From positions 62,001 to 126,000 of the forward strand of contig JACIXC010000008.1 of NCBI GenBank assembly GCA_014360655.1: a stretch of DNA of 64,000 nt, written 5' to 3'. This document shows positions 31,818 to 59,570 of the stretch, in pieces. A model generated the notes under the pieces. It saw only the letters and a list, made by a program, of their open reading frames with translations, was not told where the DNA came from and did not search any database. The position numbers were made by a program, and so were the translations under genes. The number at the start of each line of letters is the position of its first letter. The stretch's first letter is position 1. The DNA comes from Actinomycetota bacterium (GTDB lineage Bacteria > Actinomycetota > Geothermincolia > Geothermincolales > RBG-13-55-18).

Positions 31818-32413
31818 GGATAATCACTCCCTTCGCTCCGGGCGATCCGTGCCCTGCGCCCTTTGGCCCGTCTCGCCCGCAGCCCGCGTATCCTCCCGCG
31901 GCCCACGACCCCCAACGGGCGCGCCTCACCGCACATACTATGATATCGCCCTCCGCCGCCTGTAGGTACGTGGACGGGAGGGGTGATGCATCCCCGCGGG
32001 GCTTGACCTCCCGGTGGCGGTTGATAGAGATGAACTTCCACGGTATGCGCTACCACACGAATCGCGTTACCGCCGTTCGCTCAGGTATAGCCGGCGTGGT
32101 CCCCGCCGCCCTCCATGTGCCTGGTGACGGGGTTTCCGCTCCGTGAACGCGATTTGCCCCACGGGTTTTCCGGCTGTGCCGATGCACGCATGACGTTACG
32201 GCGCTTCATGCGAGGTTGGCTTTCAAAGGATGCGGAGGTTGCCTGCGCCCACCTTCTCGTATCTAATGTATATGGGTGCGTGTCTCGGTGGCCACGGAAA
32301 AGATGAACTTGCCTGGCATGTTTCTGGGTCGACACGGGACGTGCGGCGCGTATAGCGGCTGATCGGCATTGTTGCAGTCCATGCGATGCTTGTGCGGGGA
32401 AGGGGGGCTTGTG
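31818..32413. other. long intergenic region, no gene recognised
   Basis: Nearly 600 bases between divergent genes. Short open frames exist on both strands but have neither good starts nor protein character. I see no RNA gene. Confidence 0.35.
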
Positions 32414-33598
32414 ATGGTGAACGTGGCGACAGGTGACGACGTTTACGTGCGGCTGCGGGAGTTCCTGGACCGCCTGCCCAGCGGTTTCCCCGCCACGGAG
32501 AGCGGGGTGGAGCTGCGGTTGCTGAGGAAGCTCTTCACCCCGGAGGAGGCCGAGCTTGCCATGCGGCTGCGCCTCTTCCCGGAGCCCGCGCGGGTGATCG
32601 CCAGGCGCTGCGGGCTGGGAGAAAGCGAGGCCGCGGAGAAACTGGAGGACATGGCCAGGAAGGGACTGGTGCTGCGGGTGTTCGGCGGGAGGGAACGCTT
32701 CTACCTGGCGTTACACTTCGTGGTGGGTATCTACGAGTTCCACCTTAACGACATCGACCGCGAGCTGGCGGAGATGTTCGAGGAATACATCGAGCACGCG
32801 GGAAGAACCCTGCCCAAGCAATACAGGGTGGTGCCGGTGGGCGCGGCGGTTCCCTCCGCATCCCGCGTGGCGCCCTACGACCGCGTGCGGGAGCTGGTGT
32901 CCCGCTATGAGGACATCGCCGTGGCACCGTGTATCTGCCGCAGGGAGAAGGGCCTGCTGGGCGAGGAGTGCGATAAGCCCAGCGAGACCTGCCTGACCTT
33001 CGGCGTCGGTGCCCAGCTCTACGTGGAGAACGGGCTGGGCCGAAGGATCGACGCCGCTGAAGCCCTGGCGGTGCTCGACAGGGCCGAGGAGGCGGGTCTC
33101 GTCCTGAACGCCACCAACGCGCGGGATATCGTCAACATCTGCTGCTGCTGTTCCTGCTGCTGCGGGGTCCTGCGTGCCCTGAAGCTCGAGGAGAGGCCGG
33201 CCGAGGGCATACGTTCACCCTATTACGCGGAGATCGACCCCGCGAGCTGCGACCTCTGCGGGACCTGCCTGGAACGCTGCCAGATGGAGGCCCTGCGCGA
33301 GTCGGATGGTTCCATGCGCGTGGACCGGGACAGGTGCATCGGCTGCGGGCTCTGCGTATCCACCTGTCCCGCGGGAGCCGTCAGGCTGGTGACCAAGGAA
33401 GACGTCCCTGCGCCATATGCCAATTATTTCCACAACCTTGCTGGTGTGGCGGGGGGAAGGGGGTTGCCTTTCGGGAAGATGACTCCCGTGATGCGCCTGA
33501 CGAAGATACCTGTGTTCCTGCGCGTCCTGCCCTACCTGTACAAAACGGGCCTCGTTACCCCGGTGGTCAACCTCCTGGCCAGGAGGGGCTGGGTCTAG
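32414..33598 (+). CDS. cysteine-rich iron-sulfur protein with winged-helix-like N-terminus (paralogue B)
   Basis: 394 residues from the ATG at 32414 (GGGGGG upstream). Residues 38-100 (FTPEEAELAMRLRLFPEPAR, then SEAAEKLEDMARKGLVLR) look like a small winged-helix domain. A cysteine array follows: APCICRRE (Cys173, Cys175), Cys186, Cys193, and NICCCCSCCCG (Cys243-246, 248-250). Two ferredoxin clusters are at Cys279/282/285/289 and Cys308/311/314/318. The hydrophobic C-terminal tail (IPVFLRVLPYLYKTGLVTPV) may touch a membrane or partner. Related to the genes at 28272 and 34832. Function unknown; a redox-responsive role is inference. Confidence 0.75.
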   Translation: MVNVATGDDVYVRLREFLDRLPSGFPATESGVELRLLRKLFTPEEAELAMRLRLFPEPARVIARRCGLGESEAAEKLEDMARKGLVLRVFGGRERFYLALHFVVGIYEFHLNDIDRELAEMFEEYIEHAGRTLPKQYRVVPVGAAVPSASRVAPYDRVRELVSRYEDIAVAPCICRREKGLLGEECDKPSETCLTFGVGAQLYVENGLGRRIDAAEALAVLDRAEEAGLVLNATNARDIVNICCCCSCCCGVLRALKLEERPAEGIRSPYYAEIDPASCDLCGTCLERCQMEALRESDGSMRVDRDRCIGCGLCVSTCPAGAVRLVTKEDVPAPYANYFHNLAGVAGGRGLPFGKMTPVMRLTKIPVFLRVLPYLYKTGLVTPVVNLLARRGWV

Positions 33599-33640
33599 GC
33601 GTCTTTATGGGCATCATCGCCATCTTTGGGGTCAGGCCCC

Positions 33641-33673
33641 GTCCATGGGCCCCGTCCATGGGCCCCGTCCACG
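33641..33673 (+). repeat. 13-bp tandem repeat upstream of the dehydrogenase gene
   Basis: GTCCATGGGCCCC occurs twice (33641-33653 and 33654-33666), followed by a third partial copy (GTCCACG). It lies about 50 bases before the dehydrogenase start, in its likely promoter or leader. Confidence 0.8.
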
Positions 33674-33723
33674 TCTGGGGTATATTTAAAAGGTGCCGGT
33701 TGCTTCGGACAGGGAGGATCGAG

Positions 33724-34551
33724 ATGGGCGGCCGTGTCAAGGTCAGGGATTTCGAGGGCAAGAGAGTCTACCTCGTGGGGGGATCGAGCGGCATCGGGCT
33801 GGCCGCGGCAAAGCTCCTGGCACGGGAGGGGAGCGACGTCGTCGTCTTCGCCCGCGGCCGCGAGCGCCTGGAAGCCGCCGTGGGCGAGATGGAGAGGGAA
33901 AGGAAGCGGGAGGGGCAGCGTTTCGCCTGGAGGCAGCTGGACGTCACCGACCACCAGCAGGTCGCCCGGGTGATGGATGAGGCGGTGGCCGCATTCGGCC
34001 CCCCGGACATCCTCATCAACTGCGCCGGGCGCGCCCGCCCCGGCTACTTCGAGAACATAAGCTACGAACAGTTCGACGAGAGCATGAAGATACACGCCTA
34101 CGGGGCCTGGAACACCGTCTCCGCCCTTTATCCCCACATGAAGGAGAGGGGAGGCTACATCGTCAACACCTCCTCCGTGGTGGGGTTCATGGGCGTCTTC
34201 GGCTACACGGATTACGCCGCCTCCAAGTTCGCGGTGGTGGGTTTCAGCGAGGCCCTGCGCAGCGAGGCCAGGCGCCACGGCATCGGGGTCTCCGTCCTCT
34301 GCCCTCCCGACACCGACACCCCGGGCTTCGCCGTGGAAAACCTTACCAAGCCGCCGGAGACCGTGGCGGTGAGCGAGGGCGGCGGCATCATGCGCCCCGA
34401 GGAGGTAGCCGCGGCCCTGCTCGGTGGGATGCGCAGGGGGCGCTTCTTCATCGGCCCCGGCTCCGCCGGCATGATCTACCGCGTGAAGCGCTTCCTCCCC
34501 TGGCTGGTGGACATGGTCATGGAGCGGGCGATAAGAAAAGCCCGCAGATGA
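33724..34551 (+). CDS. short-chain dehydrogenase, 3-ketodihydrosphingosine-reductase-like
   Basis: 275 residues, ATG preceded by AGGGAGG. The Rossmann nucleotide site is VYLVGGSSGIGLAAAKLL (Gly19-Gly25), with NCAGRARPG, the catalytic Ser in NTSSVVGFMG and the YAASK pair near residues 164-168. The segment PPDTDTPGFAVENLTKPPET is characteristic of 3-ketodihydrosphingosine reductases, which reduce 3-ketosphinganine with NADPH. The C-terminal hydrophobic helix (LPWLVDMVMERAIRKARR) suggests membrane association. No serine palmitoyltransferase gene is in the window, so a role in sphingolipid synthesis is unproven. Confidence 0.82.
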   Translation: MGGRVKVRDFEGKRVYLVGGSSGIGLAAAKLLAREGSDVVVFARGRERLEAAVGEMERERKREGQRFAWRQLDVTDHQQVARVMDEAVAAFGPPDILINCAGRARPGYFENISYEQFDESMKIHAYGAWNTVSALYPHMKERGGYIVNTSSVVGFMGVFGYTDYAASKFAVVGFSEALRSEARRHGIGVSVLCPPDTDTPGFAVENLTKPPETVAVSEGGGIMRPEEVAAALLGGMRRGRFFIGPGSAGMIYRVKRFLPWLVDMVMERAIRKARR

Positions 34552-34831
34552 GGGAGGGTGGAGGCAGTCGGGCAACCGCATTCATCATGCATGGATGCCG
34601 CCAGTGTTGATGCAGGAGGTAAGGGCGGTGCGGGCGGAGGATGCGTCAAAGATAGCGGTAATGTAAGCGTGGGTCACGGATTTCTCCGTGGTTGCGGAAA
34701 AGAGCCCTCGCGGCGCCTTACCATGACGTGAGCCTCCCGGGACGGTAGAAGATGCCGTAAGGGCAGGTTGCGGCGAGAACATGTGCGCCGATGAGGAAGT
34801 CGCGGGTTCGGAAGGCAGGGAGGGAAGGGAG

Positions 34832-36025
34832 ATGGCTGAAATGGCTGACGAAGTCTATATAAGGTTGCGAGAGTTCCTGGACGGATTACCGGGAGGTTTC
34901 CCGCCCGAAGCCGGCGGTTTGGACATCGAGTACCTGAAACGGATGTTCACACCCGAGGAGGCAGAAGTCGAGCTGCACATGAAACCGGTTCCTGAACCGG
35001 CGTCAGCGATCGCGTGGCGCTGCGGGAAACCGGAGCAGGAGACGGAGGAGATCCTCGAATCCATGGCGGGGAAGGGGTTGATCCTTCCCGTTCCCACCGG
35101 GGACAGGAAGCTTTACATGGCCCTGCAGTACATGACCGGGTTCGGTGAGCAGCTGTTGGCCTACGGATTAGATTCGGAAGCAGCAAGGCTCTGCCTGGAT
35201 TATCATGAGCGCTCGGGCTTCATGGCTGCCTTTGCCACGCAGAGGCAGATGCGTGTGGTGCCGGTGAGCGAGGCGGTGGACGCCACCCCGGCGGTGGCCA
35301 CGTATGACCGGCTTCGGGAGATGGTCATGAAACAGGACATCATAGCCGTCACGCCATGTCCCTGCCGGGTCTCGAATGAGAAGGCAGGCCGGAAATGCGA
35401 GCACAGCATCGAGACGGAGCTGAGCTTCGGTTTCGTGGCGGAGTGGAGGATTGACAATGGCTTTGGGAGGAGGATCGGCAAGGACGAGGCCTTGAGGATC
35501 ATCGACGAGGCGGAGGAGACCGCGCTGGTCCTGGCACCGACCAATACCCGTGAAGCCATAGGGATGTGCATGTGCGGCGCCTGTTGCTGCCACTGGCTGC
35601 AGGGGCTGAAGATGCACCAGCGGCCCGCAGATCACGTGCAGTCGTCTTACCAGGCGAGAATCAACACCGCGGCATGCAGCGCCTGCGGGACCTGCCTGGA
35701 GCGCTGCCAGATGGAAGCCATAGTAGAAAAGGGGGACGCCATGGAGGTGGACACGGCCAGGTGCATCGGGTGTGGTCTCTGCGTGTCCAAGTGTCCGGAG
35801 GGAGCGGTGTCGCTGGTTGCCAAGCATGGGGCAGGGGAACCCTCGCCCACCTACCTGGGCATGTTCGCCCGGGTTGCCGGTGAGCGGGGACTTCCCTTGG
35901 GAAAGGCGGAGTGGCTGATGAATAGAGCCTCCCTTGCTACCTTCATGAGATTATGGAAAGCAATGCATAAACTGCGCCTGGCAAAGCCGGTGATAAGCTA
36001 CATGGCGAAAAAGGGGATGGTCTGA
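34832..36025 (+). CDS. cysteine-rich iron-sulfur protein with winged-helix-like N-terminus (paralogue C)
   Basis: 397 residues from the ATG at 34832, with GGGAGGGA upstream; ATG at 34781 is possible. The layout matches the gene at 32414: a winged-helix-like segment (FTPEEAEVELHMKPVPEPAS, TEEILESMAGKGLILPV), then TPCPCRVS (Cys176, Cys178), Cys189, the array MCMCGACCCH (Cys246, 248, 251-253), two ferredoxin clusters (CSACGTCLERC, CIGCGLCVSKC) and a similar C-terminal tail. One array cysteine of paralogue B (SETCLTFG) is glutamate here (IETELSFG). Only the dehydrogenase gene separates the two paralogues. Function unknown. Confidence 0.75.
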   Translation: MAEMADEVYIRLREFLDGLPGGFPPEAGGLDIEYLKRMFTPEEAEVELHMKPVPEPASAIAWRCGKPEQETEEILESMAGKGLILPVPTGDRKLYMALQYMTGFGEQLLAYGLDSEAARLCLDYHERSGFMAAFATQRQMRVVPVSEAVDATPAVATYDRLREMVMKQDIIAVTPCPCRVSNEKAGRKCEHSIETELSFGFVAEWRIDNGFGRRIGKDEALRIIDEAEETALVLAPTNTREAIGMCMCGACCCHWLQGLKMHQRPADHVQSSYQARINTAACSACGTCLERCQMEAIVEKGDAMEVDTARCIGCGLCVSKCPEGAVSLVAKHGAGEPSPTYLGMFARVAGERGLPLGKAEWLMNRASLATFMRLWKAMHKLRLAKPVISYMAKKGMV

Positions 36026-36036
36026 ACGATTTGATG

Positions 36037-36070
36037 GAGATAAGCGGCGGGAAAGGCTTCTCCTTATCTC
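36037..36070 (+). terminator. possible terminator hairpin after paralogue C
   Basis: GAGATAAG (36037-36044) and CTTATCTC (36063-36070) can pair around an 18-base loop. No U-tract follows, so this is uncertain. Confidence 0.25.
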
Positions 36071-36211
36071 GTCCGTATATAGCAGCTTCCACGCGGGAAG
36101 GCGATCATCGCCCCGCGTCACCATGCGTGGCGCCGCTCCCGCATCTGCGTCGGGAATTGCACGCGTCATCAGCGGGAACGTGTTGCGAAGAATGAAACAT
36201 GGCGGGTTGAA

Positions 36212-37402
36212 TTGAAGACGACGCATGAGAGATACAGGCGATTTCGCGGGATTCTCGTGCTCGCCCTTGTCCTGGCGCTGGGTGCCGCACCGGCCGGATG
36301 CGGAAGATCCTCTCGGGGCGGAAACGGGGGCGAAGACGGCGGCAGTGGCGGTGACGACGGTGCCCTGGACGCCCTCACTCTGGAGCAGAAGGTGGGGCAG
36401 CTCTTCCTGGTGGGCATCGAGGGCACGGAGGTGACCCCGGAGATCGAGCGGCTGTTCCGGGAGGTGCACCCCGGAGGAGTGGTCCTCTTCTCTCGGAACA
36501 TCGTCGATGAAGGCCGGCTCAAAAGGCTCATCTCGGACCTGCAGGAGCTATCGCACGCCGACAGTGGCCTCCCTCTCCTGGTGGCCGTGGACCAGGAGGG
36601 AGGGGAGGTCTCGCGCCTGGGGTGGCTCGAGGACCGCGTGCCCCAGGCGCAGGTTGCGGATCCCGAACAGGCCTACCGGATGGCCCTCGCCAGGGCGCGG
36701 GGCCTCGCGGAGGTGGGGATCAACCTCAACCTGGCCCCGGTCCTGGACTTGGGGGTGCGCGGGGATTTCCTCACCCGCCACCGGCGCACCTTCAGTGGAG
36801 GCCCGGAGGAGGTAGGCGAGATGGGAAAAAGTGCCATCTCAGGCCAGCGGGACGGCGGCATCCTCTCCTGCGCCAAGCACTTCCCGGGATACGGCGGCAT
36901 CGACTACGACCCCGAGAACGAAAGGCTCGCCGTGGTGCCCTCCCTTCCCGAATTCTCGCAGTTCCAGGCGGCGGCCGCCGCGGACCCGGAGTTTGTGATG
37001 ACCGCCAACGTCATCTACCGCGAGCTGGATCCGGAAGTCCCCTTCACCCTCTCACCCTCCTGCATCGCCTTCCTCAGGGAGAAGGTGGCCGGCGAATACC
37101 TGGTCGTGAGCGACGACCTCGCCAGCAAGGTGCTCAAGGAGGCCTACGGGCTAGGGAGCACCGTGGTCCATGCCTGCAAGGCGGGCGTGCAGGTGCTGCT
37201 CATCTCCGGTTATGAAAAAGGGGATGTCGAAACGGCATACACCGCCCTCCTGGAGGCGGCGCGCAGCGGCGAGATCACCGAAGAGGAGCTGGACGCCCAC
37301 GTTGCCGGTATCCTCCGCCTCAAGCAAAGACTCCGACCCCAGCACGGGGGTCAGAGCGGGGGATCGTGTCCTCGATCCACGGCCGGAGTTGACTTGCGAT
37401 GA
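36212..37402 (+). CDS. glycoside hydrolase family 3 lipoprotein (beta-N-acetylhexosaminidase-like)
   Basis: 396 residues from a TTG start. The lipoprotein signal ends at Cys30 (AAPAGC) and a Gly/Asp/Ser linker follows. The catalytic domain matches NagZ-type family 3 glycosidases: LTLEQKVGQLFLVGIEGTEV, GGVVLFSRNI, VDQEGGEVSRL, CAKHFPGYGGID and the nucleophile region YLVVSDDLASKVL. Such enzymes remove N-acetylglucosamine from peptidoglycan fragments or chitin oligomers; as a lipoprotein it would work outside the membrane. A decayed copy of its C-terminal part sits at 39010-39110. Confidence 0.88.
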   Translation: MKTTHERYRRFRGILVLALVLALGAAPAGCGRSSRGGNGGEDGGSGGDDGALDALTLEQKVGQLFLVGIEGTEVTPEIERLFREVHPGGVVLFSRNIVDEGRLKRLISDLQELSHADSGLPLLVAVDQEGGEVSRLGWLEDRVPQAQVADPEQAYRMALARARGLAEVGINLNLAPVLDLGVRGDFLTRHRRTFSGGPEEVGEMGKSAISGQRDGGILSCAKHFPGYGGIDYDPENERLAVVPSLPEFSQFQAAAAADPEFVMTANVIYRELDPEVPFTLSPSCIAFLREKVAGEYLVVSDDLASKVLKEAYGLGSTVVHACKAGVQVLLISGYEKGDVETAYTALLEAARSGEITEEELDAHVAGILRLKQRLRPQHGGQSGGSCPRSTAGVDLR

Positions 37403-37483
37403 TCTATATTCGGGAGTAAACGGGAACGGTGCCTTCGTCGCCGGCTCCCATGCGAATGATCTGCCGGGACCAAGGGTGAAACC

Positions 37484-37552
37484 GCGCTTTTCCGCAACGG
37501 GGGTGGCGGGAACATGCTTCTCCGGGACATGTCACGCCGGCGCGCGATCCGC
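37484..37552 (+). pseudogene. decayed fragment of a metallo-beta-lactamase-fold gene
   Basis: This stretch aligns with part of the intact gene at 39171 (around 39508-39574). In the best 46-base stretch about 36 bases match by my count, including ATGCTTCTCCG and ACATGTCACGCC. It lies between the family 3 glycosidase and the DUF2130 gene. Confidence 0.6.
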
Positions 37553-37670
37553 GCGTCACCTTGCGTGCATGCCGTGCGCGCTTTTCGCGTTGCCGGGAAT
37601 GTCGCCACCGGCAAGTAAAATACGTAGCGTGGCTGCAGGCAAAGGATGGCGATACCAAAGGAGGTGCGCC

Positions 37671-38942
37671 GTGGACGCACAGGTGATCACCTGCCCCCAG
37701 TGCGGGTACGAGATACCCTTGACCGAGGCCATCTCCCACCGCATCAGGGAGGAGATGGAAAGGGAATTCCAGGCCCGCATGGCCATGCAGCGGAAGGAAC
37801 TGGAAAATAAGGAGAAGGACCTGCTTTCGCGGGAAGCGGCCCTGCGGGAAGCCGCGGGACGCGTGGAGGAGGAGGTGGCGAAGAGGCTGGCCCTGGAGAA
37901 GGAAAACCTGGAAAAGGCTGCCAGGGAGAAGGTCAGGGGGGAATTCCAGCTCGAGCTCAACAACCTGGAGGAGGAGCTCAAGGAAAAAGGTGAGAAGCTG
38001 AAGAAGATGCTGGAGGCGGAGCTCCAGCTGAGAAAAGAGCAGCGAAAGCTCAAGGAGGAAAAAGAGGCCATGGAGCTGGAGATCGCCCGGCGCCTTGACC
38101 GGGAGAGGAAATCCATGGAGGAGGCGATACGCAGGGGCGTGTCCGAGGAGTTCGTCCTGCGGCAGAGGGATTACGAGGAGAAGATAAGGAACCTCACCGA
38201 GCAGATAGGCGAGCTCAAGCGGAGGGCGGAGCAGGGTTCCCAGCAGGCCCAGGGGGAGGTCCTGGAGCGGCAGGTGGAGGAGGAGCTCAGGGTGAGCTTC
38301 CCCCAGGACCGCATAGAGGCCGTGTCGACGGGCAGGAAGGGAGCGGACATACTGCAGGTGGTCTGCGACGACGCCGGAAGGGAATGCGGCGCCATACTCT
38401 GGGAGGCGAAGAGGACCAAGGCATGGAGCGACGGCTGGCTGGAGAAGCTCAGGGAAGACCAGCGGGAGGCGGATGCGGACATCGCGGTGATAGTGAGCAC
38501 CGTGCTTCCCCGGGACATCAAGGGCATCGGCCTGAGAGATAGGATCTGGGTCTGCGACTACCCCTCCTTCACCGGGTTGGCCACCGCCCTGCGGGCCGGA
38601 CTCATTCAGGTATATACCGCGAGGCAGGCGGAGGTGGGAAAGGGCCACAAGATGGAGCTCCTCTACGATTACCTCTCCGGGCTGGAGTTCCGCCAGAGAG
38701 TGGAGGCGATGGTGGAAGCCCTGCGGGCCATGCACATGGACCTGGAAAGGGAAAAGACGGCCATGCAGAAGATATGGAAGAAGCGGGAGAAGCAGATGCA
38801 GAGGATCCTGGCGAGCACGGCCGCCATGTACGGGGAAATGCAGGGCATCATCGGGGCCTCCATGCCGGAGCTCGAGGCCCTGGACCTGAAGGCCATCGCC
38901 CCCGCCCCTGACGACCCGGAGGAAGGCGAGGTGGTGCTGTAG
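37671..38942 (+). CDS. DUF2130 coiled-coil protein with nuclease-like domain
   Basis: 423 residues from a GTG with a perfect AAAGGAGGTG site; an open frame upstream to 37170 is not coding. The N-terminus is half a zinc knuckle (ITCPQCGYEIPL). Residues 20-190 form a long charged coiled coil. The C-terminal DUF2130 domain has GADILQV (Asp near 226) and CGAILWEAKRTKAW (Glu near 245, Lys near 247), a PD-(D/E)xK-like arrangement, followed by DADIAVIVSTVLP. The layout recalls RmuC-type coiled-coil nucleases. The family has no established function. Its flanks carry decayed copies of its neighbours, which suggests it was inserted. Confidence 0.85.
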   Translation: MDAQVITCPQCGYEIPLTEAISHRIREEMEREFQARMAMQRKELENKEKDLLSREAALREAAGRVEEEVAKRLALEKENLEKAAREKVRGEFQLELNNLEEELKEKGEKLKKMLEAELQLRKEQRKLKEEKEAMELEIARRLDRERKSMEEAIRRGVSEEFVLRQRDYEEKIRNLTEQIGELKRRAEQGSQQAQGEVLERQVEEELRVSFPQDRIEAVSTGRKGADILQVVCDDAGRECGAILWEAKRTKAWSDGWLEKLREDQREADADIAVIVSTVLPRDIKGIGLRDRIWVCDYPSFTGLATALRAGLIQVYTARQAEVGKGHKMELLYDYLSGLEFRQRVEAMVEALRAMHMDLEREKTAMQKIWKKREKQMQRILASTAAMYGEMQGIIGASMPELEALDLKAIAPAPDDPEEGEVVL

Positions 38943-39009
38943 GAAACAGGCAGTCCCCTGCGCCCGTGACACCCAAACCTCCCCGCACTCTTTTTGTGTA
39001 CCCTCAAGG

Positions 39010-39110
39010 TGGGCTTGTGGGTGTTTCTCATCTCCGTTATGAAAAAGGGGATGCCGAGACGGCATACGCCGCCCTCATGGAGGCGGCGCGGTCCGGCGAT
39101 ATCGCCGCCG
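39010..39110 (+). pseudogene. decayed fragment of the family 3 glycosidase gene
   Basis: Bases 39026-39108 match the C-terminal coding part of the glycosidase at about 37192-37275 closely (roughly 60 of 69 bases identical in the best stretch by my count), including TATGAAAAAGGGGATG and ACGGCATAC. A one-base deletion breaks the frame. It lies just upstream of the metallo-beta-lactamase-fold gene. Confidence 0.75.
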
Positions 39111-39170
39111 GCTTCCGTACGCTCAGGTTACCGGGGGTCCAGGGCATGAAACCAAGGCAGGTGGGCATAG

Positions 39171-40130
39171 ATGCATGATGTGCGTTGCGTGGTGTGCGCT
39201 TTCCTGGCTCTCGCCATCATCGCCACCATGGGCTTCTTGGCGGGATGTGGACGGGCCGGGAGCAGCGGTTCAGCCCGGGAGGGAGGAGGATCGACCCCCG
39301 GGGAAGGGGAACCGCTCCTGGAGGACGGTGAAACGGCTCCTGGCGAAGAGGGATCGGTCTCGGAAGAAAGGGGAGAGGTTATGCCCGATGCTGAAGGGGA
39401 AGAAGAAGCCGTCGTGCTGACGGTGGTGTACGACAACAACCCCTACCTCGAGGGGCTGGAAGCCGCGTGGGGTTTCGCCTGCCTGGTGGAGGGCAGGGAG
39501 AAGACGGTACTTTTCGACACCGGGGGCGATGGGGATATGCTTCTCCGCAACATGTCACGCCTGGGCATCGATCCGGGGATCATTGACGCGGTGGTGATAT
39601 CCCATGCTCACAGCGATCACACCGGCGGGCTCTCTCGCCTCCTGCGGGCAAACCCCGGTCTCGAGGTTTATCTACCCGGCTCCTGCCCTGAAGGGCTGAA
39701 GGAGTCGGTGAGGTTATCCTGCTCGCGCCTGGTGGAGGTTTCCGGCGCCCAGCGGATCTGCGAGGGCATTTGGACCACCGGGGAGATGGGCGGCGAGGTG
39801 AGGGAACAGGCGCTGGTTATCCGCAGCGGCGCCGGCCTCTTGCTGGTGACCGGCTGCGCCCACCCCGGCGTGGTGAAGCTGGCCGGGAAAGCGGGGGAGG
39901 TTTGCTCGGAGGAGGTCTGCGCGGTCATGGGGGGATTCCACCTCGGCGGCGCCGGCAGCGGAGAGGTGGAGGCCACCATCTCCAGACTCATAGCCCTGGG
40001 GGTGCAGTATGCCGGCCCCTGCCACTGTACGGGGGACATGGCTACGCGGGCCTTCCGCGACGCCTTCGGAAGCTGCTTCATCCAGGTTGGGGCGGGAAGG
40101 AGTATAAGCTCGACGGACATTTCCCAGTGA
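39171..40130 (+). CDS. metallo-beta-lactamase-fold lipoprotein
   Basis: 319 residues with a lipoprotein signal (lipobox Cys26 in GFLAGC), an acidic linker of about 55 residues and a metallo-beta-lactamase fold: VVISHAHSDHTGG (HxHxDH, near residues 143-148), TGCAHPG, MGGFHLGG and GPCHCTGD. It resembles the archaeal-type dihydropterin ribofuranosylaminobenzene phosphate synthase-like hydrolases. Exported copies of this fold are seen in other anaerobes; the substrate is unknown. ATG and signal peptide agree on the start. A fragment of a second copy lies at 37484-37552. Confidence 0.85.
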   Translation: MHDVRCVVCAFLALAIIATMGFLAGCGRAGSSGSAREGGGSTPGEGEPLLEDGETAPGEEGSVSEERGEVMPDAEGEEEAVVLTVVYDNNPYLEGLEAAWGFACLVEGREKTVLFDTGGDGDMLLRNMSRLGIDPGIIDAVVISHAHSDHTGGLSRLLRANPGLEVYLPGSCPEGLKESVRLSCSRLVEVSGAQRICEGIWTTGEMGGEVREQALVIRSGAGLLLVTGCAHPGVVKLAGKAGEVCSEEVCAVMGGFHLGGAGSGEVEATISRLIALGVQYAGPCHCTGDMATRAFRDAFGSCFIQVGAGRSISSTDISQ

Positions 40131-40202
40131 TCCCCATGGCTACATGGCTGATCGATTTCGGCATCTTGAAAAGCTGCACGGCGGCGCTTCTCCACCGGTC
40201 TC

Positions 40203-40323
40203 GTGCCCAGGCGACCCTTCGCGACCAGGCGCTTCATCCCCCGACCGGCGGACATGGGGCAGCAGCTCCCGGAGGAGAGGCGGGGTGACACGGCGCGCAT
40301 AAGGGTGTTCGGCAGCAATGAGA
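40203..40323 (+). pseudogene. decayed 3' fragment of an HdrD-like gene
   Basis: Read in frame from 40203, this stretch encodes FATRRFIPRPADMGQ then LPEERRGDTARIRVFG. It aligns with RFFPRPVDVEGPLPE and ARRGDAARIRLFG in the intact HdrD-like protein at 59571, with about 18 of 27 residues identical. No start or upstream domain remains. It abuts the 3' end of the enoyl-CoA hydratase gene. Confidence 0.6.
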
Positions 40324-40344
40324 ACTTCGCTTCCAGGGCGGGCC

Positions 40345-41109
40345 CTATGCGCCGCTCCATTTCGGATCGCGTTTTTCCATGAAGGCCAATGCGCCTTCTA
40401 CGGCATCCTTGCTGGTGATTATGGCTTCGAATCTCTCGGCGCTGAATTCGTAGCCGCCCAGGCCCCGGTTGATGGCCTCCTTGGTGAATCTGACCGCCAG
40501 CGGGGCCGCCCTGCGCATCTTGCCTATCATGGCCTCCACCGCGGACATGAGGTCTTCCCGTGGCACCACCTGGTTGACCAGTCCGATACGCAAGGCCTCG
40601 CGGGCGGATATGCGCTCGCAGGTCATGATGAGCTCCTTGGCCTTTGCCCGCCCCACTTCATCCGCCAGCCGGATCATGGCGTAGGGGCAGGTGACCCCCC
40701 TCGTGGGGCCGATGAAGCCGAACTCCGCCTCCTCCGCGGCGATGATCATATCGCACATCAGGGCGAGCTCGGCTCCGTGGCCCAGGGCATGGCCGTTTAC
40801 CGCGGCTATGACCGGCTTGGGGCAATCAGTGAGCTTGATGGCGACGGAATTGCCGGATGATACGTCCAGTTCCTGCCTGATCATGGTGATCGCCTTTACC
40901 GGATCGCCGAAATCCGCCCCCGAGGAGAAGATATCGCCTCCGCCGGTCAGGACGATGAAGCGCAGGCTTTGGTCGGCCGCGGCTTCGTCGATGGCGCGGC
41001 CCAGTTCCTCGGTAAGCTCGAGAGAGATAGCGTTCTTCCTCTCGGGCCTGTTCAGGGTGATGATGGAGTAGTCGTCCTTGACCTCATACAGGATCGCCCG
41101 GAATCCCAT
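40345..41109 (-). CDS. enoyl-CoA hydratase/isomerase family protein
   Basis: 254 residues from the ATG at 41109 with GGGGGGAG upstream; the frame extends further without a ribosome site. It shows the crotonase fold: YSIITLNRPERKNAISLELT, FSSGADF (oxyanion loop), PVIAAVNGHALGHGAELALM, and the usual catalytic position in FGFIGPTRGVTCPYAMIRLA. Such enzymes hydrate or isomerise acyl-CoA thioesters. FGFIGPTRGVTC lacks the usual Glu of hydratases, so the exact reaction is uncertain. No other beta-oxidation gene is adjacent. Confidence 0.85.
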   Translation of the reverse strand: MGFRAILYEVKDDYSIITLNRPERKNAISLELTEELGRAIDEAAADQSLRFIVLTGGGDIFSSGADFGDPVKAITMIRQELDVSSGNSVAIKLTDCPKPVIAAVNGHALGHGAELALMCDMIIAAEEAEFGFIGPTRGVTCPYAMIRLADEVGRAKAKELIMTCERISAREALRIGLVNQVVPREDLMSAVEAMIGKMRRAAPLAVRFTKEAINRGLGGYEFSAERFEAIITSKDAVEGALAFMEKRDPKWSGA

Positions 41110-41412
41110 TTTCTCCCCCCTTAACGGATCCTCACTCATTTCCCGCGCTGCTATGTATCCTATCATCTCGCGGGCGGGAATGACGCTCAAACCCGCCTTT
41201 CGCTTCTCCGGGGTATGCTGTCGGCGCCCTTCCCCTTCGAGTCAGAAAACGAAAAAGTATTCCACCAGCAGAGAACCGGGGGGCATGCCGTGCGCATGCC
41301 GTGCATGCGGGCGACGCCCGGTGGTAGAATATTTTCCGTGCCGGTTCCCGGCGCGGGCGGGTGGATCATCGAAGGCAGGCGTTCCCGTTGTCTCGAGAAA
41401 GAAGGTGACCTG

Positions 41413-42327
41413 ATGCCGAGCGCGAGATTTCGTGTCGCCAGGCTCCTGGCCAGGTTGACATCAATCCTCCTCTTCCAGGCTTTTTACCCTGTGAAGTACC
41501 AGCGCTTCTTTTTCTCCAACGTCGTCCCGTTGTTCTCGATCAGGGCGGCGGGGGTGAAAAGGGAACACGCCGCGGTGCCGGGAATACCCGCGGAGTGGCT
41601 GATCCCCGACGACGCGGAGAGCGGACGGGCGCTGCTCTATCTCCATGGAGGCGGGTACGTCATCGGTTCCATCAGGACCTACCGCAACATGGTATCCCAC
41701 CTGGCTTCCGCCGCCGGGTGCCGCGCCCTCTTGATCGAATATCGCCTGGCGCCCGAGAACAGGTTCCCCTGCGCGGTCGAGGACGCGGTGACGGCGTACA
41801 GGTGGCTGCTGTCGCAGGGATACGACCCCGGGAACATCGCCATAGCGGGCGACTCCGCCGGAGGGGGCTTGGCGGCCGCGACGCTGGTCTCCCTGCGGGA
41901 TGCGGGCGAACCACTCCCTGCGGCCGCCATGCTCCTGTCCCCCTGGACCGACCTGGAGGGCACGGGTGAGAGCCTGGGGACCGTGGGCTGGAGGGACCCC
42001 ATGCTGAACAAGTGGATCATCCGCAAGATGGCCGCCTCGTACCTGGGCGACGCGGATCCCAGGGATCCCCTGGCCTCGCCCCTGTACGCGGACCTGAGTG
42101 GGCTTCCACCCTTGCTCATCCAGGCGGGCACAAGCGAGATCCTGCTGGACGATGCCAGGAGGCTGGCGGAGAGAGCCGAGGAAGCCGGCGTTTCGGTGAA
42201 ACTGGATATCCGGGAAGGGATGTTCCACGTGTGGCAGTTCTTCGCCCCGCTGGTCCCGGAAAGCAGGGAGGCCCTGGAAAGGATTGGCAGGTTCTACCGG
42301 GAGAAAGTTGGGGCGAAAGCCGGGTGA
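41413..42327 (+). CDS. alpha/beta hydrolase, hormone-sensitive-lipase family
   Basis: 304 residues from the ATG at 41413 (GAAGGTGACC upstream). The HSL-family signature LLYLHGGGYVIGS forms the oxyanion hole; the nucleophile Ser is in GDSAGGG; the acid is in DPLASPLYADLSG, and the His in MFHVWQFF. It is expected to hydrolyse short acyl or acetyl esters. An N-terminal hydrophobic segment (LTSILLFQAFYPVKYQRFFF) may tether it to the membrane. A remnant of a different hydrolase follows its stop codon in the same frame. Confidence 0.9.
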   Translation: MPSARFRVARLLARLTSILLFQAFYPVKYQRFFFSNVVPLFSIRAAGVKREHAAVPGIPAEWLIPDDAESGRALLYLHGGGYVIGSIRTYRNMVSHLASAAGCRALLIEYRLAPENRFPCAVEDAVTAYRWLLSQGYDPGNIAIAGDSAGGGLAAATLVSLRDAGEPLPAAAMLLSPWTDLEGTGESLGTVGWRDPMLNKWIIRKMAASYLGDADPRDPLASPLYADLSGLPPLLIQAGTSEILLDDARRLAERAEEAGVSVKLDIREGMFHVWQFFAPLVPESREALERIGRFYREKVGAKAG

Positions 42328-42351
42328 ACCGCCCCGGCCAGGGCGGGAAAA

Positions 42352-42591
42352 TACCAGATCCTGGATATAGCCGCGCGCATCACCCAGGACTTCCTCCTAC
42401 TGGGCTCGACCAGGGACCACTTCATCCCATGCGGCTTCTACAAGAAGGTGATAGACGGCCCGGTAAACGTGAGGTCGCTCACCTTCATGCTCTTCACCGA
42501 GAAGGAGCAAGCGGAAAGCCGTTGCAACGTGGGCAATCCACGCCTGGCCCTGGACACGATATTGCATTGGATCGCGGAAGGAAGCGGTTAG
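42352..42591 (+). pseudogene. C-terminal remnant of another alpha/beta hydrolase
   Basis: An open stretch beginning YQILDIAARITQDFLLLGST ends at TAG 42589-42591. It contains RDHFIPCGFYKKVIDG, NVRSLTFMLFTEKEQAESRC and NVGNPRLALDTILHWI, the C-terminal part of alpha/beta hydrolases with the acid and His region (TEKEQAESRC, where intact relatives have EHAENHC). It has no start codon, ribosome site or nucleophile domain. Confidence 0.65.
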
Positions 42592-42789
42592 GGCGGGGAT
42601 CGCCTTTCTTGCTCGCGCAGTATCGGGTACCGGAGAGAGCGATGCCAAGGAGGCCCTTCAGGCCGATCGCTCCTGTGGCTTGTGGAAGTCTGCGAGGCAG
42701 AAACCGGGATCTGCGCATTCAGCGGGAAAGCCTGGTCCGTATGGCAATCATGAGTTTTCAATCAATCGCTTGGCGGGCAAGAACGTGAA

Positions 42790-42813
42790 AGGCGAGGCCG
42801 CTGGGCCTCGCCT
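42790..42813 (-). terminator. terminator of tRNA-Asn
   Basis: A perfect ten-base stem AGGCGAGGCC / GGCCTCGCCT with a four-base loop lies seven bases beyond the tRNA 3' end on the minus strand, followed by TTCACGTTC. Confidence 0.7.
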
Positions 42814-42820
42814 GCTTTGC

Positions 42821-42896
42821 TGGCTCCCCGGGAGGGACTCGAACCCCCAACCTAGTGGTTAACAGCCACCCGCTCTACCGGTTGAGCTACCGGGGA
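42821..42896 (-). tRNA. trnN: tRNA-Asn (GTT)
   Basis: A complete 76-base cloverleaf on the minus strand. The acceptor arms TCCCCGG and CCGGGGA pair fully, the discriminator is G and CCA is encoded. The D-arm is AGCTCAACCGGTAGAGC, the anticodon loop is CTGTTAA (anticodon GTT), and the T-arm contains GGGTTCGAGTCCC. Confidence 0.97.
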
Positions 42897-42967
42897 ACGC
42901 CACTTTTTTGCCTACTCTATGCGATTTTCACGCCCCTACGCGCCGAGCGTTTTCGGGCCGGCTTCAG

Positions 42968-42996
42968 ATTATATGATACCACGCAGGCGGGTACAA
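42968..42996 (-). promoter_or_regulatory. promoter of tRNA-Asn
   Basis: On the minus strand TTGTAC and a perfect TATAAT are separated by 17 bases, ending about 70 bases before the tRNA. Confidence 0.55.
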
Positions 42997-43153
42997 GGTC
43001 CGGCGGGGGCGAAACAGCCTAATGCGTACCCCAGGAACCCCCCCGGATGGCTGCGGGGAATATCCTTCGTGGCCGGGGCGGGACCGATGGCGGATCGTTG
43101 CCACCGGGGAGACGGGGAGGAATGGCATAACCAGGTCCACGGTCGCCGGTAGC

Positions 43154-43267
43154 GGGAGCCCTGGCGGGAGTCGCAGGGATCGCGATGACGCGGATGGAGC
43201 TGATATTCACGCGTGGTCAGGCCATTAAGGGAACCCTGGCGGGAGTCGCGGGGATCGCGATGACGCG
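43154..43267 (+). repeat. 39-bp direct repeat
   Basis: Two copies (43154-43192 and 43229-43267) differ at two positions; both contain CCCTGGCGGGAGTCGC and GGATCGCGATGACGCG. They are 75 bases apart in non-coding DNA. Confidence 0.85.
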
Positions 43268-43598
43268 TAGGAGTTGCGGCGACCCGACCCCCTCGTGTTA
43301 GAATCTTCCCGTCCGGAAACGAAAAAGGGGGGCATCATCAGCTGACGGGAAACGCCGGAAAGCGCCGGGCAATTCCAGAAGTAGCCGCAAAAAATCGGTA
43401 AGCACCGGGGCGGTAAGCACCGGGGGGCACCGGGAAATGCCGGGAGGCATGGGGGGAAGAAAGGGACACGGGGAAGCATCAAGAAACACAGGGAACAACG
43501 CCTCCGCGATCTCCCGTGGCGGCCGTGCGAAATGAGACACCTCCCCCACCACGAGGCTTTCATCGCACCCGCGACGCGTCTGCGAGGGGCACCGGGAA

Positions 43599-45011
43599 AT
43601 GCGTAGGGTGGTCAGGCTCGAGCAACGAAGGCGCCTGAGGGAACGCCGGGTAGAGTTTATCCTGCTCACCCTCATACTCATAGCCCTCTTCTTCCTGCTC
43701 TTCATCTTCCTCTCCATGCACCGGGAGGGAGGAATGGAGGCCCAGACCCGGGCGCAGGCCATCCTCCCCCTCCGGATAGGGGTCGATGGTGACCTGGCGG
43801 GCGAGATCACCCCCCTCGTCCAGCGCTTCCAGGACGCTCGCGCCGACGATCCCGTGGAGGTGGTAGAGGACGGCGGCTCCGTCGTCATCACCAGGGTCCC
43901 CTTCTTCGTCTTCAAGGGATACCGGCGGGAGATCCTCTCCGTCCCCGCCCTCAGGCTGTGGGCGGGTGACCGGGAGAGGATACTGCGGCAGGCGAGGAGC
44001 ATCTGGCTATGCGGCGATGAGGACGGCGGGAGGACGGAGGAGCTGGCCGACTTCCTCGCACGGGAGCTCGCAGCGCTCCACCCCGAGATCACCCTCAACG
44101 CAGTGGGGGACATCATCCCTGGCAGGAAGGTGGCCATGAAGATGGCCCAGAACGGCGTCCTCTACCCCTTCCGGGAGGTGGCGCCCCACGTCAACGGCGC
44201 CGACATCGTCTACGCCGACCTCGAATGCCCCCTCTCCGACCGTTACCCGCCGCCCTACCAGGGTGTCGATTTCATCGCCCCCAGCGGGACCATCGAGGGG
44301 CTCAAGCTGTGCGGCATCGACATCGTCTCCCTGGCCAACAACCACAGCACCAACTTCGGGACCGCTGCCTTCACCGACACCCTGCAGCTGCTGCAGGCCA
44401 ACGGCATCGCCTACGTGGGGGGAGGCTACAATGCGGACGAGGCATACCGGCGCGCCGTCATGGACGTCAAGGGCACCAGGATATCCTTCCTCGATTACAA
44501 CTCCATCCTGGGGAGCATCAACGCCACGCCGAGCCGTCCGGGCGTGGCATGGATAGACATGCAGCCTTTCGCCGCGGATGACCCGGAGGATGTCGCCATG
44601 GTGCAGGCCGCCATCCGCGATGCCAAACGGGACTCGGACTTCGTGATCGCGAGTTTCCACTGGAGCGAGGAGTACAAGAAGATCCCCTCGCCCTCGCAGA
44701 AGAAGGTGGCGCACGCCGCCTGCGATGCCGGCGCGGACATGGTCATCGGCACCCATCCCCACTGCATACAATCCCTCGAATGGTACGGGGACAGCCTCAT
44801 AGCCTACAGCCTGGGGAACTTCGTCTTCGACCAGATGTGGGCGGACTACACGCGCCAGGGCATCATCCTGCGCTGCAGTCTGGTGGGCGGCGAGCTGGTG
44901 GACGTGGAAGTGGTCCCTTACCTGATCTGCGACTACTGCCGCCCGGTGGTCCTGGACCCGGCGAACGGCAGGCGCATCCTCGACGAACTCCTTGCCATCT
45001 CGGATCTATAG
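43599..45011 (+). CDS. CapA/PgsA-family protein (poly-gamma-glutamate-synthesis-like)
   Basis: 470 residues. One N-terminal membrane segment (about residues 19-38) anchors an extracytoplasmic domain. From about residue 165 a CapA metallophosphatase-like fold is clear: LNAVGDIIPGRKVAMKM, DIVYADLECPLSDR, VSLANNHSTNFGT, FASFHWSEEY-type strand (FVIASFHWSEEY) and GTHPHCIQSLEWY with YSLGNFVFDQ. CapA proteins take part in poly-gamma-glutamate or capsule export. No capBC genes are nearby, so this is probably a stand-alone surface protein. Its ATG has GAGGGG about nine bases upstream. Confidence 0.85.
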   Translation: MRRVVRLEQRRRLRERRVEFILLTLILIALFFLLFIFLSMHREGGMEAQTRAQAILPLRIGVDGDLAGEITPLVQRFQDARADDPVEVVEDGGSVVITRVPFFVFKGYRREILSVPALRLWAGDRERILRQARSIWLCGDEDGGRTEELADFLARELAALHPEITLNAVGDIIPGRKVAMKMAQNGVLYPFREVAPHVNGADIVYADLECPLSDRYPPPYQGVDFIAPSGTIEGLKLCGIDIVSLANNHSTNFGTAAFTDTLQLLQANGIAYVGGGYNADEAYRRAVMDVKGTRISFLDYNSILGSINATPSRPGVAWIDMQPFAADDPEDVAMVQAAIRDAKRDSDFVIASFHWSEEYKKIPSPSQKKVAHAACDAGADMVIGTHPHCIQSLEWYGDSLIAYSLGNFVFDQMWADYTRQGIILRCSLVGGELVDVEVVPYLICDYCRPVVLDPANGRRILDELLAISDL

Positions 45012-45314
45012 TCGTTCTCCTCGTGCATCGAAGCTCTTCCCGGGGCGGGGGAGGGCTTCCGCAGAGCGTACCCACCGGGACCGCTTCCACGGGCACCTCC
45101 CCTCGTCGAGGCGGGATGCCCGGCATTGAGCCGGGCCGCGGGAAAGGATGCCTGGCCCCGGGTCAATGGCGCGGGAGAACGATCTCAAACTGGCAGCGTA
45201 CAGTGTCTAAAGCGATGTCTGGTTTGTGACGAGATTATATTTGAAATCCGTGGCGACTTCACCGGCGGGAGTCCGCCGTCGGGAGGATAACGTTCTTCAA
45301 CGGGAGGCAAGAGA
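45012..45314. other. intergenic region, nothing recognised
   Basis: About 300 bases between two plus-strand genes; no gene, clear terminator or repeat seen. Confidence 0.35.
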
Positions 45315-45755
45315 ATGGAACCATATGAGCCCTACCAGCAAGGAAACCCTTCATCCCAAGGCCCGAGAGCCAGCTTCTTCACGCGCAAGCTGGCCTCTAA
45401 GCTGCGGCAGAAGGGGATAGACATGCCGCCTTCCGTTGCCGCCTTCCTCGACACCCCCCTGTGCTGCCTGGATGAAAAGCAGGTCGCCTACTTCGAGGGG
45501 AAATTCCGCCCCCTCATCCCGCGGCTCATCGCCGTCCTCGAGGAGGTCTACGAGGAGCTGGGGGCCGACCGCGAGGGTTGGGAGGACATGCTCACCTACA
45601 ACGTCAGGCGGGAGACCCCCATCGGCATCTGCGCGAGGGCGGTGCTGGTTAAGAAGGAGCGCGAGGCGGAGGATATCCTCACGCAGGACCTGCGGGCGGC
45701 CCAGAGGACGGTGCGCATCGAGAGGCCTCTCTGCTTCAGCGAGCCCCCTTCCTGA
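45315..45755 (+). CDS. hypothetical protein
   Basis: 146 residues, ATG preceded by GGGAGG. The N-terminal 20 residues are Pro/Gln/Ser-rich; the rest is mostly helical with no signal peptide or membrane segment. Notable segments are KLASKLRQKGIDMPPSVAAF, CCLDEKQVAYFEGKFRPLIP and YNVRRETPIGICARAVLVKK. I recognise no family. Regular codon use and a proper ribosome site support a real gene. It stands alone. Confidence 0.6.
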   Translation: MEPYEPYQQGNPSSQGPRASFFTRKLASKLRQKGIDMPPSVAAFLDTPLCCLDEKQVAYFEGKFRPLIPRLIAVLEEVYEELGADREGWEDMLTYNVRRETPIGICARAVLVKKEREAEDILTQDLRAAQRTVRIERPLCFSEPPS

Positions 45756-45852
45756 GCGGGCCCCCTCCACCACGCCGGGCGACGCCGGCGAACCGGGCGG
45801 GCCTTCCACTCGCCGTCCCTCGACAGGCTTTTCCCCTGAGAGGTTCACGGGC

Positions 45853-45884
45853 TAGAACCAGGTAAGAACCAGGCAAGAACCAGG
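45853..45884 (+). repeat. 11-bp tandem repeat, three copies
   Basis: TAGAACCAGG, TAAGAACCAGG and CAAGAACCAGG follow one another directly. The period equals that of the unrelated repeat at 8818-8860. Confidence 0.85.
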
Positions 45885-46120
45885 CACAGATAAATATTGC
45901 CACGTGCTGCGGGGAACGGACGCCAGGACGAGGTCCCCTTGCCCGTGCCGGCATGGAAGAGGGCCCGCTGCACCGATGAGAGCCGATCCGGTATCGATGT
46001 CGACTGCGCGTTCGCCTTCCACGTGATGGCAGGAGAGAGGGCCCACTACACCCCTCTTACCTGCGCGGTTTCATGGACATGGCGGGCCCCGCCCGCCTTT
46101 GCGCTGCATGCCGTTTGTTA

Positions 46121-59244: not shown

Positions 59245-59570
59245 AACCCACCTCCTGCTTCGTCTGCCGGGAGTGTGGGCCGATTTTGCGTCCGCGAAGC
59301 AAGAACCAGATACCTTCCGACCAATATCATTATACCTCGCCGGCGTGATGATTTCCTTCCCCGGGGCGTCAGAGAGGGGACCGGAGGATGGAGGCAACGG
59401 AATAAGGGTCACGCGGCGCGCAGGCGATCGATAAAATGGGGGAGTATGATGGGGAGGGTATGGAGGGAAGCGGAGAATGCCGCCTTCTTCGCCGGACGCC
59501 GACCCGTACGCTGATCGATGATACGGGAGAGTATGGGGGGAGCGGAAAACGACGGAGGGAGGTTCACGAG
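59245..59570. other. divergent intergenic region
   Basis: Between the exported protein and the HdrD-like gene. A minus-strand TATAAT is at 59329-59334. Open frames that run into the HdrD-like gene from 59436 lack a ribosome site. Confidence 0.4.

What the first reader, a model, noticed from the sequence alone, without database searches (positions are those of the whole stretch)
36212..40130. Remnants show a duplicated glycosidase/metallo-lactamase pair split by a DUF2130 gene
The order is intact glycosidase, metallo-lactamase fragment (37484), DUF2130 gene, glycosidase fragment (39010), intact metallo-lactamase. This is what a tandem duplication of a two-gene unit leaves once the middle copies are deleted and DUF2130 is inserted.
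Basis: seen in the sequence. Interest (0 to 1): 0.5.

Follow-up and report, generated by a model that had tools for sequence, protein, structure and literature searches.

The report
Decayed gene copies from local duplication
A bacterial gene neighbourhood still carries decayed scraps of two neighbouring genes, best read as leftovers of an ordinary local duplication that reshuffled gene order when redundant copies were lost; the gene in the middle was probably there already rather than inserted.

Summary
A 3'-end fragment of the GH3 glycosidase (39002-39156; core 80% over 132 columns) lies between the DUF2130 gene and the intact metallo-hydrolase. A fragment from the 5' half of the metallo-hydrolase (37473-37558; 75% over 88 columns) lies between the intact glycosidase and DUF2130. 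Both are far above chance. They differ from the intact genes about equally at all codon positions, as dead copies should, though the statistics are marginal.

The reciprocal order implies a duplication spanning the glycosidase/hydrolase junction. But 'DUF2130 was inserted' is not supported: the one same-genus genome held has DUF2130 beside the same alpha/beta hydrolase and in line with the same capsule-synthesis gene, without glycosidase, hydrolase or detectable fragments. The hydrolase fragment ends where DUF2130's conserved upstream region begins. Glycosidase and hydrolase were found adjacent in no other genome examined.

Best model: the order was DUF2130-glycosidase-hydrolase; a segment from upstream of DUF2130 into the hydrolase was tandemly duplicated; redundant copies decayed, leaving glycosidase-DUF2130-hydrolase (tandem duplication and random loss). 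The exact path is not proven. Low to moderate interest.

The parts
36212..37402 (+). intact GH3 glycosidase-like gene (retained glycosidase copy)
   Evidence: PF00933 E 5.5e-49, whole domain; relatives at 55-68% aa identity in 4 of 38 other genomes
37473..37558 (+). dead fragment of the metallo-hydrolase gene (matches 39495-39582)
   Evidence: 75% over 88 columns, E 9e-11; 0 of 500 shuffles; in its 57-base core 4/4/4 substitutions at codon positions 1/2/3 of 19 each
37553..37670 (+). DUF2130 upstream region, conserved with same-genus G001; begins where the hydrolase fragment ends
   Evidence: 0 of 1000 shuffles reach its score against G001, while 37473-37552 scores like shuffles there (750 of 1000); alignment start 37553, 37520 or 37504 under three scorings
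37671..38942 (+). intact DUF2130 gene (retained copy; probable resident of the locus)
   Evidence: PF09903 E 2.4e-71; 77% aa identity to G001, which has it next to the same alpha/beta hydrolase
39002..39156 (+). dead 3'-end fragment of the glycosidase gene (matches 37173-37329)
   Evidence: 79.5% over 132 columns, E 2e-25; 0 of 500 shuffles; 1-base deletion breaks the frame
39171..40130 (+). intact metallo-hydrolase (MBL-fold) gene (retained copy)
   Evidence: PF00753 E 1e-12; 15 other genomes of 396 in the phylum at E<=1e-20
40180..40345 (+). C-terminal remnant of a CCG-domain/Fer4 (HdrD-like) gene, a third gene fragment in the same stretch
   Evidence: 40189-40315 is 74% to 60748-60874; in-frame 41-residue match, E 1e-9
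40345..41190 (-). enoyl-CoA hydratase-like gene, flank; no close match in G001
   Evidence: PF00378 E 1e-59; 83% aa in G014; no match at E<=1e-60 in G001
41278..42327 (+). alpha/beta hydrolase (Abhydrolase_3), flank shared with G001
   Evidence: PF07859 E 9e-63; 81% aa to G001 L047:5759-6661
42342..42617 (+). 3' remnant of an FrsA-like alpha/beta hydrolase that is intact in G001 and G014
   Evidence: 82% to L047:4790-4515 and 79% to L050:645-382
36100..36209 (+). possible remnant of a first DUF2130 upstream region before the glycosidase (weak)
   Evidence: 1 of 1000 shuffles reach the score against 37553-37671; only an overlapping chunk of 2120 window chunks scores higher, next best 24.0 vs 24.5; against the G001 homologue 26 of 2120 chunks do as well

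Best explanation
This is a relic of tandem duplication followed by loss of alternate copies. Inferred ancestor: DUF2130 - glycosidase - metallo-hydrolase, in the gap between DUF2130 and the alpha/beta hydrolase that are neighbours in G001. A segment of roughly 3.2 kb, from about 110 bp upstream of DUF2130 to about codon 137 of the metallo-hydrolase, was tandemly duplicated. This gave DUF1-gly1-mbl(5')|DUF2-gly2-MBL. DUF1 and the 5' part of gly2 were then deleted and the truncated mbl decayed. The surviving order is gly-DUF2130-MBL, with a hydrolase scrap at the old duplication join and a glycosidase scrap before the hydrolase. Shown: the fragments, their chance levels, their even spread of changes over codon positions, the sharp join to DUF2130's upstream region, and the G001 synteny. 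Inferred: the ancestral order, the unit boundaries, the order of events and the deletions. The fragments themselves probably have no function.
For: Reciprocal fragments far above chance. Substitutions between fragments and intact genes total 11/10/10 at codon positions 1/2/3, against 84/66/155 between the GH3 genes of this genome and G006: the fragments changed as unconstrained DNA. The glycosidase fragment is nearest to this genome's own gene (88 of 103 aligned bases; 71 of 97, 66 of 87, 65 of 99 and 66 of 94 to G006, G012, G014 and G002), so the duplication is local. G001 keeps DUF2130 - alpha/beta hydrolase - FrsA-like - capsule gene without GH3 or metallo-hydrolase, so DUF2130 looks like a resident, and one insertion of glycosidase-hydrolase-(HdrD-like)-ECH into the DUF2130/alpha-beta-hydrolase gap reconciles the two genomes. 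The join is sharp: 37553-37670 matches the G001 DUF2130 upstream region (0 of 1000 shuffles), 37473-37552 does not (750 of 1000), as expected of a duplication join at the end of the hydrolase fragment (37558). Weak similarity of the region before the glycosidase to the DUF2130 upstream region (1 of 1000 shuffles; 1 of 500) is what this model predicts.
Against: No genome was found with the proposed pre-duplication order; G001 lacks GH3 and a close metallo-hydrolase altogether. There is no convincing remnant of the lost DUF2130 copy: 36026-36212 vs the DUF2130 gene scores like shuffles (243 of 500), and the upstream-region match is not special against the G001 homologue (26 of 2120 window chunks do as well). 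The codon-position contrast is only marginal (Fisher p 0.049 and 0.059) and pools both fragments against GH3 alone. The join is equally sharp under an insertion of DUF2130. The enoyl-CoA hydratase and HdrD-like remnant in the same gap show that the locus had further rearrangements, so other histories remain possible. G001 is a fragmented draft (about 210 contigs).
Confidence: 0.5

Rival explanations
1. One reading: a complete glycosidase-hydrolase pair was duplicated in tandem; DUF2130, coming from elsewhere, replaced the middle (3' part of hydrolase 1 and 5' part of glycosidase 2).
For: Gives the same geometry of fragments. The DUF2130 block has sharp edges, about 37553 and 38945, in the comparison with G001.
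Against: DUF2130 sits beside the same alpha/beta hydrolase and in line with the same capsule gene in G001, and beside an ARPP-1 gene in both G001 and G017, so it is probably an old resident. Pfam gives the DUF2130 gene no transposase domain. The block edges share no perfect inverted match longer than 7 bp and no perfect direct match longer than 6 bp. No other genome examined has the pair adjacent.
Confidence: 0.15
2. Same process with the other starting order, glycosidase-hydrolase-DUF2130: the three-gene block was duplicated, then hydrolase 1 (most), glycosidase 2 (most) and DUF2130 copy 2 were lost.
For: Also yields the observed order with one duplication and losses; the DNA upstream of 37553 in the window differs from that in G001.
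Against: Needs glycosidase-hydrolase on one side of DUF2130 and the enoyl-CoA hydratase on the other, so two indels relative to G001. No DUF2130 remnant was found after the hydrolase: 40131-40190 and 41191-41290 vs the DUF2130 block score like shuffles (607 and 223 of 1000).
Confidence: 0.2
3. DUF2130 landed in the glycosidase-hydrolase junction by an event that itself duplicated about 0.4-0.6 kb of the junction (a very long target duplication or a template-switch insertion).
For: Needs only one event and no loss of complete genes; the fragments cover just the junction: end of the glycosidase and part of the first 411 bp of the hydrolase.
Against: Transposon target duplications are normally a few to about 14 bp (established knowledge, recalled); no terminal repeats at the block edges; DUF2130 synteny with G001.
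Confidence: 0.1
4. Unrelated decay: a second, independently acquired glycosidase and a second hydrolase gene each decayed to scraps, and the reciprocal order is coincidence.
For: The stretch has other unrelated gene scraps: the HdrD-like end and the FrsA-like end.
Against: Flat codon-position pattern and closeness of the glycosidase scrap to this genome's own gene argue against old independent paralogues; reciprocal placement by coincidence is unlikely (inference).
Confidence: 0.05

Closest known systems
Tandem duplication-random loss (TDRL), described for animal mitochondrial gene orders (seen here only as search listing and abstract starts: PMC5745709, PMC3283314, PMC4223735)
   Same: Reciprocal remnants between surviving genes; each redundant gene kept once; gene order changed without moving any gene
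   Different: Bacterial chromosome; unit inferred, not observed; one predicted remnant (first DUF2130) not convincingly found
Ordinary bacterial tandem duplication followed by deletion and pseudogene decay (recalled, no call)
   Same: Local duplicate, truncation and decay of redundant copies
   Different: Here the loss seems to have alternated between copies and left a changed order with readable scraps

Membership tests
tandem duplication-random loss relic | remnants of the lost copies lie reciprocally between the retained genes | tested here: met
tandem duplication-random loss relic | remnants diverged without codon constraint after the duplication | tested here: inconclusive
   11/10/10 substitutions by codon position; contrast with GH3 orthologues p 0.049 and 0.059
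tandem duplication-random loss relic | a relative keeps the pre-duplication gene order | tested here: not met
   G001 lacks both outer genes; none of the four relatives with a close glycosidase has the hydrolase in the fetched flanks. For this reason it is not filed as a proven member, only as working like one
tandem duplication-random loss relic | remnant of every lost copy, including the first DUF2130 | tested here: inconclusive
   weak match of 36100-36209 to the DUF2130 upstream region only
insertion of DUF2130 by a mobile element | terminal repeats or transposase with DUF2130 | tested here: not met
   no perfect inverted match over 7 bp, no perfect direct match over 6 bp at the edges; Pfam gives only DUF2130 for the gene
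   G001 has DUF2130 in the same neighbourhood
conserved glycosidase-hydrolase two-gene unit | adjacent in other genomes | tested here: not met
   0 of 59 named hydrolase loci carry a GH3; 2 of 396 genomes have both, one of them this genome, the other on different contigs

The most novel reading that the evidence does not exclude
A bacterial chromosome caught part-way through tandem duplication-random loss: gene order changed from DUF2130-glycosidase-hydrolase to glycosidase-DUF2130-hydrolase with the discarded halves still readable, showing that this mitochondrial mode of reordering also reshuffles small bacterial neighbourhoods.
Probability: 0.4. Interest if true: 0.35.

Novelty: new member of a known kind. 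Interest (0 to 1): 0.22.

Why it matters
If the reading is right, the locus is a small worked example of how gene order changes in bacteria without any mobile element. A transient local duplication resolves by losing different copies of different genes, and the scraps record the previous order. It also warns against reading 'X between two broken copies' as insertion of X without checking a relative.

Tried and rejected
Insertion of DUF2130 by a mobile element: rejected as the leading reading because of synteny with G001 and the lack of terminal repeats. Assembly artefact: rejected because the copies differ by 20-25%, and there are no ambiguous bases in 34000-46000 or in the G001 contig. Chance similarity: rejected. 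A conserved glycosidase-hydrolase unit: looked for among relatives, the phylum sample and named genomes, not found.

Fragments of GH3 or hydrolase beside DUF2130 in G001: looked for by tblastn (none at E<=1e-4) and by shuffles: ARPP-DUF2130 spacer vs hydrolase 92 of 1000 and vs GH3 624 of 1000; DUF2130-alpha/beta-hydrolase spacer vs GH3 110 of 1000 and vs hydrolase 164 of 1000. A remnant of a lost DUF2130 copy: looked for before the glycosidase, after the hydrolase and after the enoyl-CoA hydratase gene. Only a weak upstream-region match before the glycosidase turned up, and it is not special against G001's version. Whether the DNA before the glycosidase came with it: uninformative, because the upstream regions of the four related glycosidases show no similarity to it, and the one pair of relatives compared with each other (G012, G014) shows none either. 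A remnant of the hydrolase before the glycosidase (as in a triplication): not significant (455 of 1000 against the gene, 40 of 1000 against the fragment). Literature on DUF2130 (3 papers; listing and abstract starts only) and on Geothermincolia (3 papers; listing and abstract starts only) did not help.

Full report
What is there. The window lies in contig C8 of a 2.97 Mb, 35-contig genome. The interval reads: 4Fe-4S protein (34781-36025), GH3 glycosidase (36212-37402), DUF2130 protein (37671-38942), MBL-fold metallo-hydrolase (39171-40130), enoyl-CoA hydratase (40345-41190, minus strand), alpha/beta hydrolase (41278-42327), capsule-synthesis protein (43599-45011).

The fragments. Two uncoded pieces resemble the two outer genes. 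39002-39156 matches the 3' end of the glycosidase (37173-37329); the core is 79.5% over 132 columns with a 1-base deletion. 37473-37558 matches codons about 109-137 of the metallo-hydrolase; 75% over 88 columns. Neither score is reached by any of 500 dinucleotide shuffles, and both remain significant against the whole 64 kb (E 1e-23 and 4e-9). In that whole-window comparison three uncoded pieces resemble window genes at E<=1e-6; the third, 40189-40315, is the C-terminal end of a CCG-domain protein like the one at 59436-61004. 'Uncoded' rests on my own codon-usage gene calls, which missed two ORFs at 23319-25252.

How they diverged. Counting differences in the frame of the intact gene gives 4/4/5 (of 25/26/26) and 3/2/1 (of 11/10/11) for the glycosidase piece and 4/4/4 (of 19 each) for the core of the hydrolase piece. 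The glycosidase genes of this genome and G006 differ at 84/66/155 of 371 positions each. The contrast is in the direction of unconstrained decay, but with so few changes it is marginal (Fisher p 0.049 for the matching region, 0.059 for the whole gene; both fragments pooled against GH3). The glycosidase piece is nearest to the window's own gene: 88 of 103 aligned bases, against 71 of 97 (G006), 66 of 87 (G012), 65 of 99 (G014) and 66 of 94 (G002). It is a local copy, not a foreign paralogue.

Is DUF2130 a newcomer? The only other genome of the genus among those searched, G001, has no glycosidase at E<=1e-15 and no hydrolase better than E 9.5e-12, but it has DUF2130 at 77% identity. There the order, read in the window's direction, is ARPP-1 (opposite strand), DUF2130, alpha/beta hydrolase, FrsA-like hydrolase, and further on the capsule-synthesis gene. 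The window's right flank is collinear with it: alpha/beta hydrolase 81% aa, a 276-bp 3' scrap of the FrsA-like gene (82%), capsule gene 83-84% aa. The G001 spacers on either side of DUF2130 resemble GH3 or the hydrolase no more than shuffles do (92 to 624 of 1000 shuffles as good). G017, of another family in the order, also has ARPP-1 (46% aa) beside DUF2130 (50% aa), in a different relative orientation. DUF2130 is therefore better seen as a resident. ARPP-1 has no match at E<=1e-20 in the window's genome.

The left join. Alignments of the DUF2130 block to G001 start at 37553, 37520 or 37504 under three scorings; the last two run into the hydrolase fragment. Tested apart, 37553-37670 matches the G001 upstream region (53.5 against a shuffle maximum of 25.0, 0 of 1000), while the fragment 37473-37552 does not (750 of 1000). 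So conserved DUF2130 upstream DNA begins where the hydrolase fragment ends (37558), to within a few bases.

Is glycosidase-hydrolase a unit? Close relatives of the glycosidase occur in 4 of the 38 other genomes examined (G002, G006, G012, G014; two more, G031 and G038, hold only distant ones). None of the four has the hydrolase in the fetched flanks. Fifteen other genomes of 396 in the phylum have the hydrolase at E<=1e-20; none of their fetched flanks, some of them only about 1.5 kb, carries the glycosidase at E<=1e-4. Forty-three other genomes of 396 have a GH3 at E<=1e-40. Only G000 and G014 are in both lists, and in G014 the two are on different contigs (C50 and C55). Among 59 named hydrolase loci with up to 8 kb flanks, many cut short by contig ends, none carries a GH3 or DUF2130 relative at E<=1e-3. 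Neighbours of the 39 more distant phylum GH3 genes were not examined beyond this overlap of lists.

Reconstruction. The observed order gly-(mbl)-DUF2130-(gly)-MBL can come from several histories. Starting from DUF2130-gly-MBL (one insertion into the DUF2130/alpha-beta-hydrolase gap of the G001 type), a tandem duplication from just upstream of DUF2130 to about codon 137 of the hydrolase, then loss of the first DUF2130 and of the 5' part of the second glycosidase, gives the observed order and places the join at the observed edge. It predicts a trace of the first DUF2130 before the glycosidase. A weak one exists: 36100-36212 vs 37553-37671 is reached by 1 of 1000 shuffles (1 of 500 for the longer stretch). 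Of 2120 window chunks only one, which overlaps the same stretch, scores higher, but the next best (24.0 against 24.5) are close, and against G001's version of the region 26 of 2120 chunks do as well. The coding part leaves no trace (243 of 500 shuffles as good). Starting from gly-MBL-DUF2130 is also possible but needs an extra indel and leaves no DUF2130 trace on the right (607 and 223 of 1000 shuffles as good). Insertion of DUF2130 into a duplicated or self-duplicated junction is possible geometrically, and would give an equally sharp join, but must explain away the G001 synteny.

Literature. Searches for tandem duplication and random loss with bacteria, prokaryote and gene-order terms were seen only as listings and abstract starts: 15 of 62 papers, 5 of 5, 1 of 1. 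Most of those listed are mitochondrial studies, and none announces a bacterial example in its title or abstract start. Only this open-licence library was searched, so no claim is made that no bacterial example exists.

Verdict. Real observation, duplication supported, insertion of DUF2130 not supported. An ordinary evolutionary process with an unusually readable record; interest 0.22.

Noticed in passing
window 40180-40345: In-frame C-terminal remnant of a CCG/Fer4 (HdrD-like) protein between the metallo-hydrolase and the enoyl-CoA hydratase; 74% to the end of the gene at 59436-61004.
   Followed up: partly
window 42342-42617: 3' scrap of an FrsA-like alpha/beta hydrolase that is intact in G001 (L047:4541-5707) and G014 (L050:390-1571).
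   Followed up: partly
L051:4815-5162 (G012): Only the last 116 codons of the enoyl-CoA hydratase are matched in G012, while the gene is intact in the window and in G014.
   Followed up: no
window 40345-41190 vs L050:4814-5605: Fourfold-site divergence of the enoyl-CoA hydratase between this genome and G014 (another genus) is 0.24, as low as between this genome and same-genus G001 for three other genes (0.20-0.32): possible horizontal transfer.
   Followed up: no
window 32369-36025: Two 4Fe-4S proteins (46% identical) in tandem around a short-chain dehydrogenase; G014 and G012 have one such protein, two dehydrogenases and the alpha/beta hydrolase in a row.
   Followed up: no
window 23319-25252: Two overlapping ORFs (372 and 275 aa) that the codon-usage gene caller missed; by eye they look like an AbiE-type pair (regulator plus nucleotidyltransferase), which was not tested.
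   Followed up: no
window 42824-42896: A tRNA gene (minus strand, Rfam RF00005) inside a stretch, 42787-43012, that is conserved with G001, near the row of gene remnants.
   Followed up: no
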